Assembly: GCF_029626155.1 (NCBI RefSeq)
Contig: NZ_JARUBL010000001.1
Coordinates: 7,818,816 to 7,882,815, forward strand
From: Solwaraspora sp. WMMD1047
GTDB lineage: Bacteria > Actinomycetota > Actinomycetes > Mycobacteriales > Micromonosporaceae
Length of the DNA stretch: 64,000 bases
Direction of reading: 5' to 3'
A program made the translations under genes and the position numbers. Shown one piece after another: positions 1,683-15,035 of the stretch. How positions within the stretch are numbered: position 1 is the stretch's first letter; every line of letters begins with the position of its first letter. The notes under the pieces are model-generated. The model was given only the letters and a program-made list of their open reading frames with translations. It was not told the DNA's origin and did not search any database.

Positions 1683-2375
1683 TCAGTTGTCCGCGCGTTG
1701 GCGCAGCATCGGCGGATGCAGCACGGCGGCTCCGCCGGCCCGGAAGAGGCGGGCCGGCCGGCCCGGCCCGCCCTCGGTGGACCGTCCGGTCCACTCCACG
1801 AAGTCGACGGTTCCGGTGACCTTGCGGTGGAAGTTCCGGGCGTCGAGCTCGCGACCCCAGACGATTTCGTACACCTCGCGGAGCTGGGCGATGGTGAACT
1901 CCGGCGGGCAGAACGCGGTCGCCAGCGAGGTGTACTCCAGTTTGGAGCGGGCCCGGTCCACGCCGTCGGTCACAATCTTGTGGTGGTCGAAGGCGAGCCG
2001 GTCGGCCGCGACCCTGGTCACCGACCGCCACTGCGCCTCGGCGGCGTCGGAGCCGGCTTCCGGGATGGACAGGTTCGGCAGCAGCGCCAGGTAGGCGACG
2101 GTCACCACCCGCTGGCGCGGGTCCCGCCGTGGTTCGCCGTAGGTGCCGAGCTGTTCGAGATGTGGCGCCGGTTCACGGATTCCGGTCTCCTCGGCGAGTT
2201 CCCGGGCCGCCGCGGCGGGCAGGTCCTCGTCGATCCGGACGAAGCCGCCGGGCAACGCCCACCGCCCCTCGTACGGCGGCACTCCCCGGCGGACGAGCAG
2301 GATCTTGAGTTCTTCCTCGCGGACGGTGAGGACCACCAGGTCCACAGTGACCGCGAAGGGTGGATATTCTTCCAT
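1683..2375 (-). CDS. Nudix-domain transcriptional regulator (NrtR-like)
   Basis: 230-residue protein. Residues 44-66 form a canonical Nudix box (GFVRIDE...RELAEETGI), including the REUXEEXGU core. The C-terminal 75 residues (FTIAQLREVYEIVWG, RNFHRKV, then GRPARLFR) match the winged-helix domain that accompanies Nudix domains in the NrtR/ADP-ribose-sensing repressor family. NrtR regulators bind ADP-ribose-type ligands and control NAD-cofactor genes; here the divergent operon encodes an SPFH protein and an NAD-kinase-like protein, which fits. The intact Nudix box means hydrolase activity cannot be excluded. The ATG at 2375, with GGTGAG upstream, is preferred over a longer frame because that frame crosses the intergenic operator region and enters the divergent gene. 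Confidence 0.85.
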   Translation of the reverse strand: MEEYPPFAVTVDLVVLTVREEELKILLVRRGVPPYEGRWALPGGFVRIDEDLPAAAARELAEETGIREPAPHLEQLGTYGEPRRDPRQRVVTVAYLALLPNLSIPEAGSDAAEAQWRSVTRVAADRLAFDHHKIVTDGVDRARSKLEYTSLATAFCPPEFTIAQLREVYEIVWGRELDARNFHRKVTGTVDFVEWTGRSTEGGPGRPARLFRAGGAAVLHPPMLRQRADN

Positions 2376-2393
2376 GTTCGCTTTCTCACCACC

Positions 2394-2434
2394 TTGACGA
2401 GAACCTACCACGAACGTTATCGTCAACAAGACGA
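2394..2434. promoter_or_regulatory. Candidate operator: inverted repeats between the Nudix regulator and SPFH gene
   Basis: TTGACGA at 2394-2400 is mirrored by TCGTCAA at 2420-2426, and the latter is half of a second palindrome, TCGTC-AACAA-GACGA (2420-2434), directly upstream of the GGAGG of the SPFH gene. Overlapping dyads in a 79-bp divergent intergenic region suggest autoregulation by the Nudix/winged-helix protein and control of the SPFH-NAD kinase pair. Binding is inferred, not shown. Confidence 0.5.
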
Positions 2435-2454
2435 GAAAATGGAGGTACGACCCG

Positions 2455-3516
2455 ATGGCCGACGTCACCAGCAGGCTCTTTCTGCGCCACCTGCGCGGCA
2501 CCCCCACCACCTGGGTGCGCCACCAGGTGAAGGGAAAGGTGCGCACCGAGGGCGTCGGGCAGTCCTTCTGGTACCGGCCGCTGGTCGCCGTCATCAGCGA
2601 GGTCCCGATCGACGACCGCGAGCTGCCCCTGCTCTTCCACGCCCGGACCAGCGACTTCGTCGACGTGACCGTGCAGGCGACGGTGACCTACCGGGTCGCC
2701 GACCCGGCGCTGGCCGCCAGCCGCCTCGACTTCTCGGTCGACCCGCGCAAGGGCACCGCCCGGGCCCGTCCGCTGGACCAGGTCGCCACCCTCCTCGCCG
2801 AGCTGGCCCAGCAACCGGCGCTGGACCTGCTGGCCCGGGTCCCGCTGGCCGAGGCGCTCACCGGGATCGCCCCGGTCCGGGAGGCGGTCAGCGCCGCGCT
2901 GCGCGACGAGCCACGGCTCACCGACGTCGGGGTGGCGGTGGTCAGTTCCCGGGTGGTCGCCATCCGGCCCGAGCCGGAGTTGGAGCGGGCCCTGCAGACG
3001 CCGACCCGGGAGGCCATCCAGGTCGAGGCCGACCGGGCCACCTACGCCCGCCGCGCCCAGGCCGTCGAGCAGGAACGCGGCATCGCCGAGAACGAGCTGC
3101 AGAACAAGATCGAGCTGGCCCGTCGGGAGCAGCAGCTGGTCGAGCAGCACGGCACCAACGCGCGCCGCAAGAACGAGCTCGCCGCCGAGGCCGAGCTGGT
3201 CGACGCGCGCGGCCAGGCCGAACGGGACCGGGTCGCCCAGGCGGCGGCCGCCGAGAAACTGCGGGTGCTCGCCGCCGCCCGCGCCGACGAGGAGCGGACC
3301 GTCACCGCCGCCCGCGCCGACGGCGTACGGGCGGTGGGGCTGGCCGAGGCGGAGGCCGAGACCGCGAAGCTGGCCGCGTACCGGGATCTGCCGCCCGGCG
3401 TGCTCCCGGCCCTGGCGGCCAAGGAGCTGGCCGGCAATCTCCCGGAGATCGGGCAGCTCACGGTGACGCCCGATGTGGTGACCGATCTGATCGCGCGGCT
3501 GGGTCCGGCGCGATGA
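2455..3516 (+). CDS. SPFH/band 7 domain protein (soluble, flotillin-like)
   Basis: 353 residues. Roughly residues 20-190 fit a band-7/SPFH fold (VPIDDRELPLLFHARTSDFV, DVTVQATVTYRV, TDVGVAVVSSRVVAI), followed by a long Ala/Glu/Arg-rich coiled coil (about 195-315, with repeated AEAEL/AEAEAE) typical of flotillin-like oligomers. There is no N-terminal membrane helix or signal peptide, so it is likely cytosolic or peripherally associated. GGAGG lies 9 bases before the ATG; an upstream ATG at 2439 lacks a site. Its stop overlaps the start of the NAD-kinase-like gene (ATGA), implying coupled translation and possibly complex formation. Role inferred only: a scaffold linked to nucleotide/NAD metabolism under the divergent Nudix regulator. 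Confidence 0.82.
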   Translation: MADVTSRLFLRHLRGTPTTWVRHQVKGKVRTEGVGQSFWYRPLVAVISEVPIDDRELPLLFHARTSDFVDVTVQATVTYRVADPALAASRLDFSVDPRKGTARARPLDQVATLLAELAQQPALDLLARVPLAEALTGIAPVREAVSAALRDEPRLTDVGVAVVSSRVVAIRPEPELERALQTPTREAIQVEADRATYARRAQAVEQERGIAENELQNKIELARREQQLVEQHGTNARRKNELAAEAELVDARGQAERDRVAQAAAAEKLRVLAAARADEERTVTAARADGVRAVGLAEAEAETAKLAAYRDLPPGVLPALAAKELAGNLPEIGQLTVTPDVVTDLIARLGPAR

Positions 3517-4466
3517 CGGGCGGGCTCGCGCCACGGGTGGTCGTGGTGAACCGGCACAGCGAGCTGGACGAGCTGCTGGGCCGGCACGGCACTCGGGCCG
3601 CGGCCGCCCACTACCTGCGGCAACGCGGCCGCAACATAGACGAGGTCGTCGACCGGCACGACGGCCTTGCGGCGGCGCTGACCACGGTCAGCGCCGCCGT
3701 CCCGGTCGACTGGCGGCGCGGGCAGGTGAACCGGGACGACCTGCCCCGGTTCCTGTTCGGCCCGGAGGACATCGTGGTGGTGGTCGGACAGGACGGGCTG
3801 GTGGCCAACGTCGCGAAGTACCTCGACGGGCAGCCGGTGGTCGGAGTGGACCCGGAGCCCGGCCGCAACGCCGGCGTACTCGTGCGGTTCACCCCGGCGG
3901 CGGCCGGCCGGCTGCTACCGGCCGTCGCCGCCGGCCGGGCCACCGTGCGGGACCGCACGATGGTGCGCGCCGAACTCGACGACGGCCAGGAGCTGCTCGG
4001 CCTGAACGAAATCTTCGTCGGGCACCGGTCCCACCAGTCGGCCCGTTACCTGCTGTCGGTGGTGACCACGCCCCCACCGGGCGTGCCGGCCGGGAGCGAC
4101 CGGCGGCGGCGACCGGTGCCGAAGGTGGAGCGGCACTCCTCGTCGGGGGTGGTGGTCGGCACCGGCACGGGGGCGACCGGCTGGTGCGCGTCGATCGCGC
4201 GGGACCGACCGGGCGCGCCGGTGCCACCCGCCCCCGAGGAGCCGGCGCTGTGCTGGTTCGTCCGGGAGGCGTGGCCGTCGCCGGTCACCGGGGTCGCGCT
4301 CACCACCGGCCGGCTCGGTGCCGACGAGTCGCTGCAGGTGGTCGCGGAAGGGCCGGGGATGGTGGTGTTCGCGGACGGGCTGGAGACCGACCGGCTCGCG
4401 ATGAGCTGGGGGCAGCGGGTCACCGTCCGGGTCGCGCCGCGCCGCCTCCGGCTGGTGGTGCCGTGA
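3513..4466 (+). CDS. NAD kinase-like protein with altered GGDG motif
   Basis: 317 residues, start ATG overlapping the SPFH stop. It retains the NAD-kinase architecture: a Rossmann-like N-terminus (PRVVVVNRHSELDELL), VVVVGQDGLVANVAKYL at about residues 88-104 in place of the usual GGDGT loop, LNEIFVGHRSHQSARY (about 164-179, the conserved NE motif) and GVVVGTGTGATGW (about 212-224, the GTPTGSTAY-like motif). The first Gly of GGDG is replaced (GQDG) and the following Thr by Leu, so phosphate transfer may be altered or lost; the Asp is kept. True NAD kinases in actinobacteria usually sit beside recN/tlyA, so this is a divergent paralogue. Known family activity: ATP/polyphosphate-dependent phosphorylation of NAD. 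The actual substrate here is inferred at best. Confidence 0.8.
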   Translation: MTGGLAPRVVVVNRHSELDELLGRHGTRAAAAHYLRQRGRNIDEVVDRHDGLAAALTTVSAAVPVDWRRGQVNRDDLPRFLFGPEDIVVVVGQDGLVANVAKYLDGQPVVGVDPEPGRNAGVLVRFTPAAAGRLLPAVAAGRATVRDRTMVRAELDDGQELLGLNEIFVGHRSHQSARYLLSVVTTPPPGVPAGSDRRRRPVPKVERHSSSGVVVGTGTGATGWCASIARDRPGAPVPPAPEEPALCWFVREAWPSPVTGVALTTGRLGADESLQVVAEGPGMVVFADGLETDRLAMSWGQRVTVRVAPRRLRLVVP

Positions 4467-14410: not shown

Positions 14411-15035
14411 ACTCCGGCGGCGCCGCATGCCGCCCCCGCGAACGGCGACTGCGCCGGGCCGCGGCCGAGCCGGCCACGACCTGTTCGGTCAGCACCGCCG
14501 CCTGGGTGCGGGTGGGGCCGGACTGGGCGGGGCTGGACCCGGCCGCAGGGGTGGCTCCGGCGGCCGGGTCCAGCCAGACCTGGACGGCGGGACGGTCGCC
14601 CCGCGCGTCGGCAAACGGTGTCGCTCCGGTGCGGCCGTGCCGGGCCACCATCGCCACGTCGACCGTGAACTCGAACAGGCGCCAGTCAACCTCGGGTGCG
14701 GCGCGCAGGTCGCCGGCGAGCCGGTCCACCCGGGCCGGGTCGGTGACCGGCCGGGCCCGGCCCGCCACGTACGCCTCGTCGTCGCTCTCCTCCGGTGGGA
14801 ACGAGTGCAGCGCGTACCGGCCGTCGCGTTCGAGGTCGCGGCGCTTCGGCGAGTCCACCACGAAGCAGAACAGCCCCTCGTCGGTGATGACCGGGGAAAC
14901 CGGGTGCACCCGGGGACCGCCGTCGGCGCGGACGGTCGCCAGGTAGCCGAGACCCGGGCCGTACTGCTGCATGAGGAGACGGATCGAGTCGGCGAGCCGC
15001 GGCTCGTCGGAGGCGAATTCGGACCAGGATGCCAT
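14391..15035 (-). CDS. Pyridoxamine 5'-phosphate oxidase-like flavin-binding protein
   Basis: 214 residues. The split-barrel PNPOx-like core is seen in LGYLATVRADGGPRVHPVSPVI, GLFCFVVDSPKRRDLERDGRYALHSF and the dimer strand DEAYVAGRARPV. Members bind FMN, F420 or haem and act as oxidoreductases or detoxifiers. The C-terminal 40 residues are Arg/Ser/Ala-rich and low complexity. Start ATG at 15035; the region upstream contains AACATACGTTCG, an AT-rich dyad-like stretch. Cofactor cannot be assigned from sequence alone. Confidence 0.82.
   Translation of the reverse strand: MASWSEFASDEPRLADSIRLLMQQYGPGLGYLATVRADGGPRVHPVSPVITDEGLFCFVVDSPKRRDLERDGRYALHSFPPEESDDEAYVAGRARPVTDPARVDRLAGDLRAAPEVDWRLFEFTVDVAMVARHGRTGATPFADARGDRPAVQVWLDPAAGATPAAGSSPAQSGPTRTQAAVLTEQVVAGSAAARRSRRSRGRHAAPPESPVPAP

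What the first reader, a model, noticed from the sequence alone, without database searches (positions are those of the whole stretch)
1683..4466. Nudix-repressor / SPFH / NAD-kinase-like triad
A Nudix-winged-helix regulator with an intact Nudix box is divergent from a soluble SPFH protein and a coupled NAD-kinase-like protein, with overlapping dyads in a 79-bp gap. NrtR-type regulators sense ADP-ribose-like molecules. A soluble flotillin-like scaffold plus NAD kinase homologue under such control suggests an uncharacterised NAD(P)- or nucleotide-signalling module.
Basis: partly seen in the sequence, partly recalled or inferred. Interest (0 to 1): 0.6.

Follow-up and report, generated by a model that had tools for sequence, protein, structure and literature searches.

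The report
ADP-ribose-type repressor, ring protein, NAD-kinase-like operon
A gene switch of the kind that senses NAD breakdown products sits beside, and almost certainly controls, a two-gene unit (a ring-type scaffold protein and an NAD-kinase-like protein) that recurs together in several bacterial phyla and on plasmids, so it looks like a real, undescribed NAD-stress module.

Summary
Window 1683-4466 carries an NrtR-type Nudix/winged-helix gene divergent from an SPFH gene that overlaps an NAD-kinase-like gene by 4 bp. Of the 80 named actinobacterial loci kept, 80 have SPFH upstream of the kinase-like gene and 69 the divergent nrtR. Whole triads also stand on Rhizobium, Methylomonas, Moraxella and Providencia plasmids. 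The 79-bp gap holds two 21-bp operators 34 bp apart, overlapping a likely -35/-10 pair; 68 of 69 nrtR-adjacent loci have two such sites. In seven genomes of one genus nrtR is unlinked, yet its own promoter and the SPFH promoter both carry the operator pair: good evidence of control in trans. Residues that contact ligand in solved relatives are invariant. The kinase-like protein has the fold of human mitochondrial NAD kinase (Z 24.8) but forms its own clade with GQDGLVAN in place of GGDGT. The operator also precedes a TIR gene (window genome, imperfect sites) and a SIR2-like gene (another genome, perfect sites), and in a third genome flanks a phosphorylase/NB-ARC operon. Best reading: an NAD-breakdown-responsive operon that re-routes or protects NAD(P). 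Binding, ligand, substrate and SPFH assembly are inferred. My searches found no paper on the triad.

The parts
1683..2375 (-). NrtR-family Nudix/winged-helix regulator gene (230 aa)
   Evidence: Pfam NUDIX and NrtR_WHD; divergent from the SPFH gene in 69 of 80 named loci; SoNrtR/BtAraR ligand residues conserved
2376..2454 (.). 79-bp divergent intergenic region
   Evidence: sequence; 87 homologous gaps compared, window included
2383..2403 (.). operator 1, TTCTCACCACCTTGACGAGAA (the weaker site: 3 mismatches to the pattern used)
2417..2437 (.). operator 2, TTATCGTCAACAAGACGAGAA (0 mismatches), 34 bp from operator 1
2394..2423 (+). likely promoter of the SPFH operon: TTGACG (2394-2399), 18 bp, TATCGT (2418-2423); each hexamer lies in one operator
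   Evidence: pattern TTGACN-N16..19-TANNNT in 67 of 69 nrtR-adjacent loci, 50 of 4000 random windows; start site not measured
2455..3516 (+). SPFH/Band 7 protein gene (353 aa) without a predicted membrane helix
   Evidence: Pfam Band_7; model m9d7dc98e0fb5, pLDDT 87.4, best Foldseek matches HflK/C, flotillin, stomatin, further down the vault protein; hydropathy
3513..4466 (+). NAD-kinase-superfamily protein gene (317 aa), 4-bp overlap with the SPFH gene
   Evidence: profile match to human NADK2 8e-16; model pLDDT 94.9, Z 24.8 to 7r4l; separate clade from housekeeping NadK

Best explanation
A self-contained, horizontally mobile operon that answers NAD breakdown. The NrtR-type repressor binds two 21-bp operators that carry the -35 and -10 elements of the SPFH promoter, and so represses the SPFH-kinase operon and probably its own gene. 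When ADP-ribose or a close relative builds up (from NADases, ADP-ribosyl transfer or other NAD cleavage), the ligand enters the Nudix pocket and the repressor leaves. The cell then makes a soluble SPFH ring or cage protein and, by overlapping translation, an NADK2-type protein that phosphorylates NAD(H) or a nucleotide made from it, keeping an NADP(H) pool while NAD falls. Shown by sequence: triad, operators, unlinked nrtR with matching operators, conserved pocket, fold and most catalytic motifs. Inferred: binding, ligand, kinase reaction, SPFH assembly, and the protective role. My odds: NrtR-type control of the pair 0.9; ligand of the ADP-ribose type 0.7; active kinase on NAD or an NAD-derived nucleotide 0.55; protective role under NADase stress 0.4.
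For: Co-conservation: SPFH 80 of 80, nrtR 69 of 80 named loci; intact triads on plasmids of four proteobacterial genera. Operators: two sites in 68 of 69 nrtR-adjacent loci; composite operator-pair pattern in 63 of 150 family genomes, reversed control 0 of 150; in 107 of 354, control 0. Trans evidence: in seven of seven genomes of genus g32 examined nrtR is unlinked, its own promoter has the pair, and so does the SPFH promoter. Where nrtR is not adjacent and not known elsewhere, operators are mostly missing: 4 of 4 family loci outside g32, 6 of 10 uncut named loci. Spacing clusters at 33-34 bp (56 of 68) and 44-45 bp (10 of 68), about one helical turn apart. Pocket: R30, R84, R87, H131 align with SoNrtR Arg41, BtAraR Arg86, SoNrtR Arg98, BtAraR His131 (roles from passages of PMC4666351), invariant in 41 actinobacterial rows and with four proteobacterial rows. 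Kinase: fold Z 24.8 to human NADK2; catalytic-position Asp and N165 invariant in 56 rows. The window genome has its own housekeeping NadK elsewhere. Other operator-bearing promoters: TIR gene, SIR2-like gene, PNP/NB-ARC operon. Precedent: an NADase toxin in Pseudomonas is countered by NrtR-controlled NAD salvage (passages of PMC11535050).
Against: No binding, ligand or enzyme assay. The loop GGDGT is GQDGL (or GPDGL) in the family, so the protein may be inactive or act on another substrate; it scores below the Pfam NAD_kinase cut-off, and two proteobacterial relatives are annotated 'sugar kinase'. BtAraR shows that the NrtR fold can sense a sugar instead. Pairs without any operator exist, so NrtR control is not universal. 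NADase targets are rare: in the class, 42 of 43 genomes with the pair pattern have it at the kinase-like match and the 43rd (G455) at an nrtR-SPFH gap at a contig end; in the 150 family genomes the sites away from the kinase-like match were nrtR promoters, a contig-end triad (G002) and one SIR2-like gene. The listing was cut. The TIR sites are imperfect and 50 bp apart, and the only other TIR relative found (G003) has no operator.
Confidence: 0.5

Rival explanations
1. An extra NADP(H)-supply unit for oxidative or other redox stress, not linked to NADases or immunity: the kinase is simply an inducible NAD kinase isozyme, and the regulator reads NAD status.
For: NADK2 fold; housekeeping NadK present elsewhere; duplicated nadK genes in actinobacteria are published and were linked to sporulation (passages and section 14 of PMC6675116); NdnR, an NrtR-family regulator, responds to NAD (passage of PMC4666351).
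Against: Separate clade from housekeeping NadK (100/100); patchy distribution and plasmid carriage fit an accessory module better; operators at TIR and SIR2-like genes.
Confidence: 0.25
2. A sugar or sugar-nucleotide module: the regulator senses a pentose or pentose phosphate, as AraR does, and the kinase-like protein acts on a sugar.
For: Best PDB match of the regulator is BtAraR; 'sugar kinase' annotation and a sugar-transport neighbourhood in Rhizobium; transaldolase beside the Treponema pair; two ABC permease families that look like sugar permeases by eye occur within about 10 kb in 6 of 80 loci, at varied distances.
Against: BtAraR has Gly in place of SoNrtR Arg98 (passage of PMC4666351) whereas triad regulators keep Arg87; the kinase fold is NADK.
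Confidence: 0.12
3. A pseudo-kinase sensor: the NADK-like protein binds NAD(P) without catalysis and gates the SPFH assembly, which is the effector.
For: GQDGL in place of GGDGT, with D94-G95-L96 invariant in 56 actinobacterial rows and GQDGLVAN in the seven rows of a cross-phylum alignment; tight coupling with SPFH.
Against: The catalytic-position Asp and the SSSG...TG motif region are retained; invariance fits catalysis as well as sensing.
Confidence: 0.15
4. An anti-phage or abortive-infection system in which SPFH and kinase kill or arrest the cell (this overlaps in part with the best explanation).
For: Plasmid carriage; the repressor's operator also precedes TIR and SIR2-like genes and an EAD2/NB-ARC operon.
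Against: No PADLOC model matches SPFH or kinase at E 0.001; no homologue of either in 50,697 phage records; no defence gene was noticed by eye among the 45 largest neighbour clusters shown for 80 loci (not scanned with profiles).
Confidence: 0.15

Closest known systems
[quoted passage not shown]
   Same: Nudix plus NrtR winged helix; palindromic operator; ADP-ribose contact residues kept; MsNrtR is an auto-repressor with a 23-bp palindrome GTTTTCGA-N7-TCGAAAAC (passages of PMC6800001)
   Different: Controls an SPFH-kinase pair, not nadABC or salvage genes; two operators mostly 33-34 bp apart; actinobacterial members keep an intact Nudix box, unlike MsNrtR; scores 152 against 400 bits for the NCBIfam equivalog
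Human mitochondrial NAD kinase NADK2 (7r4l, 7n29)
   Same: Fold over 281 residues, Z 24.8, 22% identity; the Asp of GxDG, the LNE region and the TGTG...W motif align
   Different: GQDGLVAN signature, shorter, paired with SPFH, under an NrtR-type repressor; activity unknown
HflK/C, flotillin, stomatin, major vault protein (SPFH superfamily)
   Same: SPFH domain followed by a long helix (model helix 174-310); Foldseek E 1.8e-10 and weaker, TM by query length about 0.3-0.5. That such helices build cage walls in flotillin and HflK/C is recalled
   Different: No membrane anchor seen; partner is a kinase-like protein, not FtsH or NfeD
ARG-centred conflict systems with Nudix-HTH regulators (Viruses 2022, PMC9503650; authors not checked)
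   Same: A Nudix-HTH repressor thought to sense ADP-ribose and switch on an operon (section 31)
   Different: No ADP-ribosylglycohydrolase, phosphatase or chaperone in the triad; 'SPFH', 'NAD kinase' and 'NADK' do not occur in that paper's main text
NatT-NatR and NrtR-controlled NAD salvage in Pseudomonas
   Same: NAD-degrading activity countered by genes under an ADP-ribose-binding NrtR (passages of PMC11535050)
   Different: Response there is NAD salvage, not an SPFH-kinase pair

Membership tests
NrtR-family regulator | Nudix domain plus NrtR winged-helix domain | tested here: met
   Pfam NUDIX 77.2 bits, NrtR_WHD 58.2 bits, both over cut-off
NrtR-family regulator | ADP-ribose contact residues | tested here: met
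   R30, R84, R87, H131 by alignment to 3gz5/5bs6, invariant in A4 and A6; ligand itself not tested
NrtR-family regulator | palindromic operator at its own and its target's promoter | tested here: met
   binding not testable here
NrtR equivalog of NAD synthesis (NCBIfam NF050029) | score over the curated cut-off | tested here: not met
   152 against 400 bits
NrtR equivalog of NAD synthesis (NCBIfam NF050029) | nad genes under its control | tested here: inconclusive
   none noticed by eye among the 45 largest neighbour clusters of 80 loci or at the operator-bearing promoters looked at; no profile scan for nad genes was made
Active Nudix hydrolase | GX5EX7REUXEEXGU | tested here: met
   met here and in 68 of 69 named actinobacterial triads; catalytic acids lost in the proteobacterial rows; activity not tested
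SPFH/Band 7 protein | Band_7 domain over cut-off | tested here: met
   54.7 against 23.6 bits; fold matches
Flotillin proper | Flot domain and membrane attachment | tested here: not met
   Flot 19.4 against 27 bits; no hydrophobic segment over 1.6 in the window protein
NAD kinase (NadK/NADK) | fold | tested here: met
   Z 24.8, 281 residues, rmsd 3.0
NAD kinase (NadK/NADK) | GGDG(T) loop | tested here: not met
   G-Q-D-G-L in 47 and G-P-D-G-L in 9 of 56 rows
NAD kinase (NadK/NADK) | Pfam NAD_kinase cut-off | tested here: not met
   16.5 against 25.5 bits; not among PF01513 matches in the window genome
NAD kinase (NadK/NADK) | ATP- or polyphosphate-dependent NAD phosphorylation | not testable with these tools
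   needs an assay; so it is filed as NADK superfamily, NADK2-like, not as an NAD kinase
ARG-centred Nudix-regulated conflict system | ADP-ribosylglycohydrolase core | tested here: not met
   no such domain in the three proteins
Known anti-phage system | match to a curated defence model | tested here: not met
   PADLOC: none for SPFH or kinase at E 0.001; the regulator only matches candidate model PDC-S07 over its Nudix stretch (1.9e-5)

The most novel reading that the evidence does not exclude
The triad is an 'NAD refuge' induced by NAD breakdown: ADP-ribose made by immune NADases (TIR, SIR2-like) or by invading ADP-ribosyl transferases releases the repressor, and a membrane-free SPFH cage with its NADK2-like partner converts and holds the remaining dinucleotide as NADP(H), out of reach of NAD-specific NADases. 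In some genomes the same repressor also controls the NADase genes themselves, making a feedback loop between immune NAD depletion and recovery.
Probability: 0.2. Interest if true: 0.88.

Novelty: new variant of a known kind. Interest (0 to 1): 0.64.

Why it matters
NrtR regulators are known for NAD synthesis and salvage. Here the same sensor type drives a two-protein unit with no known role, conserved from Actinomycetota to Pseudomonadota and carried on plasmids (an SPFH-kinase pair with a nudix gene 4 kb away also occurs in Treponema). It joins three open questions: what cytosolic SPFH proteins do, what NADK2-type proteins do in bacteria, and how cells that carry NAD-destroying immune enzymes recover. 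The operator gives an immediately testable promoter and reporter.

Tried and rejected
Chance dyads: rejected. Ordinary housekeeping NadK: rejected. TIR gene as a conserved partner: rejected; matches in only 2 of 150 family genomes, the window's own among them, and the other has no operator. Wider gene neighbourhood: in script clusters beyond the triad the largest recurs in 10 of 80 loci and looks like an ABC-transporter ATPase by eye (45 largest clusters seen, no profile scan). Phage carriage: none found. PADLOC: nothing for SPFH or kinase. Tree of operator-linked nrtR with the window genome's nrtR paralog: unresolved, one paralog only. Tree: 17 triad rows chosen from 81, and 8 housekeeping rows; 13 stretches had been fetched for these and 5 were dropped because the script found no frame with both motifs; eukaryotic NADK2 was not included. 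Structure matches absent from the lists exclude nothing. The script gene-caller is GC3-based and rough; it misplaced or fused genes in several loci (for example SPFH in L218, L220, L225), so SPFH and kinase were located by tblastn. Part's output was cut in its gene lists; the header line of each locus was shown. Literature: full-text searches; none listed the triad; Rodionov 2008 and Huang 2009 are not held and were not read.
Full report
WHAT IS THERE. At 1683-2375 (-) is a 230-aa protein with NUDIX and NrtR_WHD domains. Divergent from it are an SPFH protein (2455-3516) and, overlapping its stop by 4 bp, a 317-aa protein (3513-4466) that Pfam barely sees as an NAD kinase (16.5 bits, cut-off 25.5). 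The same 4-bp overlap is found in 46 of 78 named loci with an SPFH reading over 300 aa.

CO-CONSERVATION. The kinase-like protein has a match in 76 of 150 genomes of the window's family, three of them weak only (E above 1e-4), so 73 strong. In the 30 loci fetched, the window's included, SPFH is adjacent in 30 (one only a fragment at a contig end), and the start of nrtR is visible in 18. In a draw of the class 65 of 394 genomes carry it, in a phylum-wide draw 12 of 296. Beyond the triad, the largest neighbour cluster recurs in 10 of 80 loci.

BEYOND ACTINOMYCETOTA. Among 72,556 plasmid records, 57 match the kinase-like protein. Complete nudix-SPFH-kinase triads in the same arrangement stand on records of Methylomonas, Rhizobium, Moraxella and Providencia. 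Cupriavidus and Proteus records (the latter 4.1 Mb long), without annotation there, match all three proteins in that order. Roseomonas, Streptomyces and Kitasatospora records have the SPFH-kinase pair without an nrtR match in the stretch; the Streptomyces and Kitasatospora ones nevertheless keep two operator sites each upstream of SPFH, the Roseomonas one none. Treponema has the pair, with a nudix gene 4 kb upstream. Annotations there read 'NUDIX', 'SPFH' and 'sugar kinase' or 'hypothetical'.

OPERATORS. In 87 homologous gaps the best match to TTATCGTC-N5-GACGATAA averages 15.0 of 16 positions, against 8.3 in shuffles with a maximum of 13 (the consensus was read from these same gaps). Of 69 nrtR-adjacent named loci, 68 have two sites within 260 bp of the SPFH start and one has a single site. 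Of 10 uncut loci without adjacent nrtR, six have none, two (Plantactinospora) have two, one (L074) has three of 1-3 mismatches, two of them overlapping, and one (L102) has a single perfect site; one further locus is cut by a contig end. Random windows with two or more: 31 of 4000. Start-to-start spacing is 34 bp (47), 33 (9), 45 (8), 44 (2), 51 (1), 27 (1): two main classes one helical turn apart, as expected if repressors touch on one face of the DNA (inference). A TTGACN-N16..19-TANNNT promoter lies in 67 of 69 (control 50 of 4000); in the window the two hexamers lie one in each operator. A composite two-operator pattern occurs in 63 of 150 family genomes at up to three mismatches (0 with the pattern reversed), in 107 of 354 at up to two (control 0), and in 43 of 394 class genomes (control in one genome). 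In the class, 42 of these 43 have it beside the kinase-like match (positions compared by eye); in the other, G455, it lies between nrtR and an SPFH gene cut by a contig end.

REGULATION IN TRANS. In seven genomes of genus g32 (G031, G057, G077, G091, G103, G112, G119) nrtR has no SPFH or kinase match in its stretch; in G031 and G119 it is megabases away. All seven nrtR promoters carry the operator pair and so do all seven SPFH promoters. In G031 and G119 nrtR still sits between the same two neighbours as in the window (an M28-type peptidase and a proline-rich protein; by eye), so the pair seems to have moved away. Pairs without operators also exist: L199, L208, L211, L212 and the four family loci L025, L026, L028, L038 (L028 and L211 are the same genome). 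Whether those genomes hold an nrtR elsewhere was not searched, except G061 (L199), which has one.

CROSS-PHYLUM OPERATORS. In Moraxella, Proteus and Providencia the gap carries three to four sites of the type TTA-N-TGTC-N5-GACA-N-TAA at up to four mismatches, the first two 33-35 bp apart (shuffle means 0.09-0.15, maxima 2-3). The pattern was read from the Moraxella gap, so Moraxella is in-sample and Proteus closely alike. Methylomonas has three weak matches, Rhizobium one, Cupriavidus none but a perfect palindrome of another sequence. So the layout may be kept while the letters drift.

SENSOR. By alignment to 3gz5 and 5bs6, P0001 R30, R84, R87 and H131 correspond to SoNrtR Arg41, BtAraR Arg86, SoNrtR Arg98 and BtAraR His131, named as ligand contacts in passages of PMC4666351. 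All four are invariant in 41 actinobacterial rows and in the five rows of the cross-phylum alignment. BtAraR, which binds arabinose, has Gly at the Arg98 position. The hydrolase signature is complete in 68 of 69 named actinobacterial triads but has lost catalytic acids in the proteobacterial rows. Sensing an ADP-ribose-like ligand is therefore the better-conserved property and hydrolysis an optional one.

KINASE-LIKE PROTEIN. A profile of 56 rows finds human NADK2 first (8e-16), ahead of bacterial NadK (1e-7). The AlphaFold model (pLDDT 94.9) aligns to NADK2 at Z 24.8 over 281 residues, 3.0 A, and to bacterial NadK at 22.5 and below. D94, G95, N165, S210-S211-G212, T219, G220, T222, G223, W224, D288 and G289 are invariant in 56 rows. 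The family mark is G-Q-DGLVAN-xx-KYL-x-GQ (P for Q in 9 of 56 actinobacterial rows), kept in the Treponema and proteobacterial members, where housekeeping NadK of the same genomes has GGDGT or GGDGS (8 actinobacterial sequences). A tree separates the two sets with 100/100 support (17 and 8 rows).

SPFH PROTEIN. The model (pLDDT 87.4, pTM 0.56) shows an SPFH head and one helix of 137 residues. The best Foldseek matches are HflK/C, flotillin and stomatin, with erlin, prohibitin and the vault protein lower. No hydrophobic segment reaches 1.6 in the window protein; three of 78 relatives reach it. A cytosolic ring or cage is a reasonable but unshown inference.

OTHER TARGETS. Genome-wide, up to three mismatches, the window genome has 66 distinct sites (my count; 92 rows, many read on both strands). 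Besides the triad, the only non-overlapping pair within 60 bp is at C1:5588978 and 5589028 (3 and 2 mismatches, 50 bp apart); I estimate 0.02 such pairs by chance. The gene behind it encodes a 501-aa protein with a TIR domain (TIR_2 6.6e-20). In G112 a perfect pair 34 bp apart lies about 10 bp upstream of the called start of a SIR2-like protein gene (SIR2_2 1.5e-9) and also faces a divergent gene that looks like a histidine kinase by eye. In G061 nrtR with two sites (1 and 2 mismatches, 33 bp apart) is divergent from an operon with a PNP_UDP_1-EAD2 protein and an NB-ARC/TPR-EAD2 protein, while the SPFH-kinase pair of that genome has no site of up to two mismatches. Three such cases, one with imperfect sites and one with two candidate genes, are suggestive only; other extra sites precede genes of no clear kind (L197, L237).

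MECHANISM. From what is published on NrtR (ADP-ribose releases the repressor), the likeliest logic is: NAD cleavage raises ADP-ribose, the operon opens, and SPFH plus NADK2-like protein are made in coupled amounts. NrtR-controlled recovery from an NADase toxin is published for Pseudomonas (passages of PMC11535050), and Nudix-HTH repressors have been proposed for ARG-centred conflict systems (section 31 of PMC9503650). What the kinase phosphorylates and what SPFH does are not shown.

NOVELTY. Each part belongs to a known superfamily. The combination, its operator layout, its cross-phylum spread and the GQDGLVAN clade were not found in print in the searches listed under Tried and rejected. I rate it a new variant of a known kind: an NrtR-type regulon with a new output.

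Noticed in passing
L168:3523-7713 (G000:C1:79522-83712): Second NrtR-family gene of the window genome heads a run of genes for a kinase-like protein (weak Pfam match), a 337-aa protein without Pfam match and an adenylosuccinate-synthetase-like protein; its upstream region shows no operator of the triad type.
   Followed up: partly
L167:5487-8603: Na/H exchanger with a zf-UBP domain directly upstream of the TIR-domain gene that carries the operator pair.
   Followed up: partly
L203, L216, L217, L218, L219, L222, L226, L228: In at least these 8 of 15 g70 loci the operator pair lies between SPFH and a divergent gene that reads as arginine deiminase, followed by an apparent ornithine carbamoyltransferase; in seven of them a Pnkp-like RNA-repair gene is seen beyond the kinase-like gene. 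In L203 Pfam confirms deiminase, Pnkp and Hen1. May be genus synteny or shared control.
   Followed up: partly
L207:9862-10725: A Sir2-type deacetylase-like gene (by eye, not scanned) lies just downstream of nrtR in genome G302.
   Followed up: no
L260, L264, L259: Moraxella and Proteus triads sit next to tet(H) or tet(J); plasmid pHHV216 keeps the kinase-like gene beside tet(H), but tblastn finds only a partial SPFH match and no nudix match there.
   Followed up: partly
L197:8070-8090 and 14509-14529: Two perfect operator palindromes 6.4 kb apart in G167; the first precedes a 449-aa protein without a significant Pfam match.
   Followed up: partly
L075:12586-12954: A second, partial kinase-like match downstream of the triad in Pseudarthrobacter.
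   Followed up: no
L237:4731-5435: Genome G029 has an nrtR of this type with an operator at its promoter, but the kinase-like protein was not matched in that genome.
   Followed up: partly
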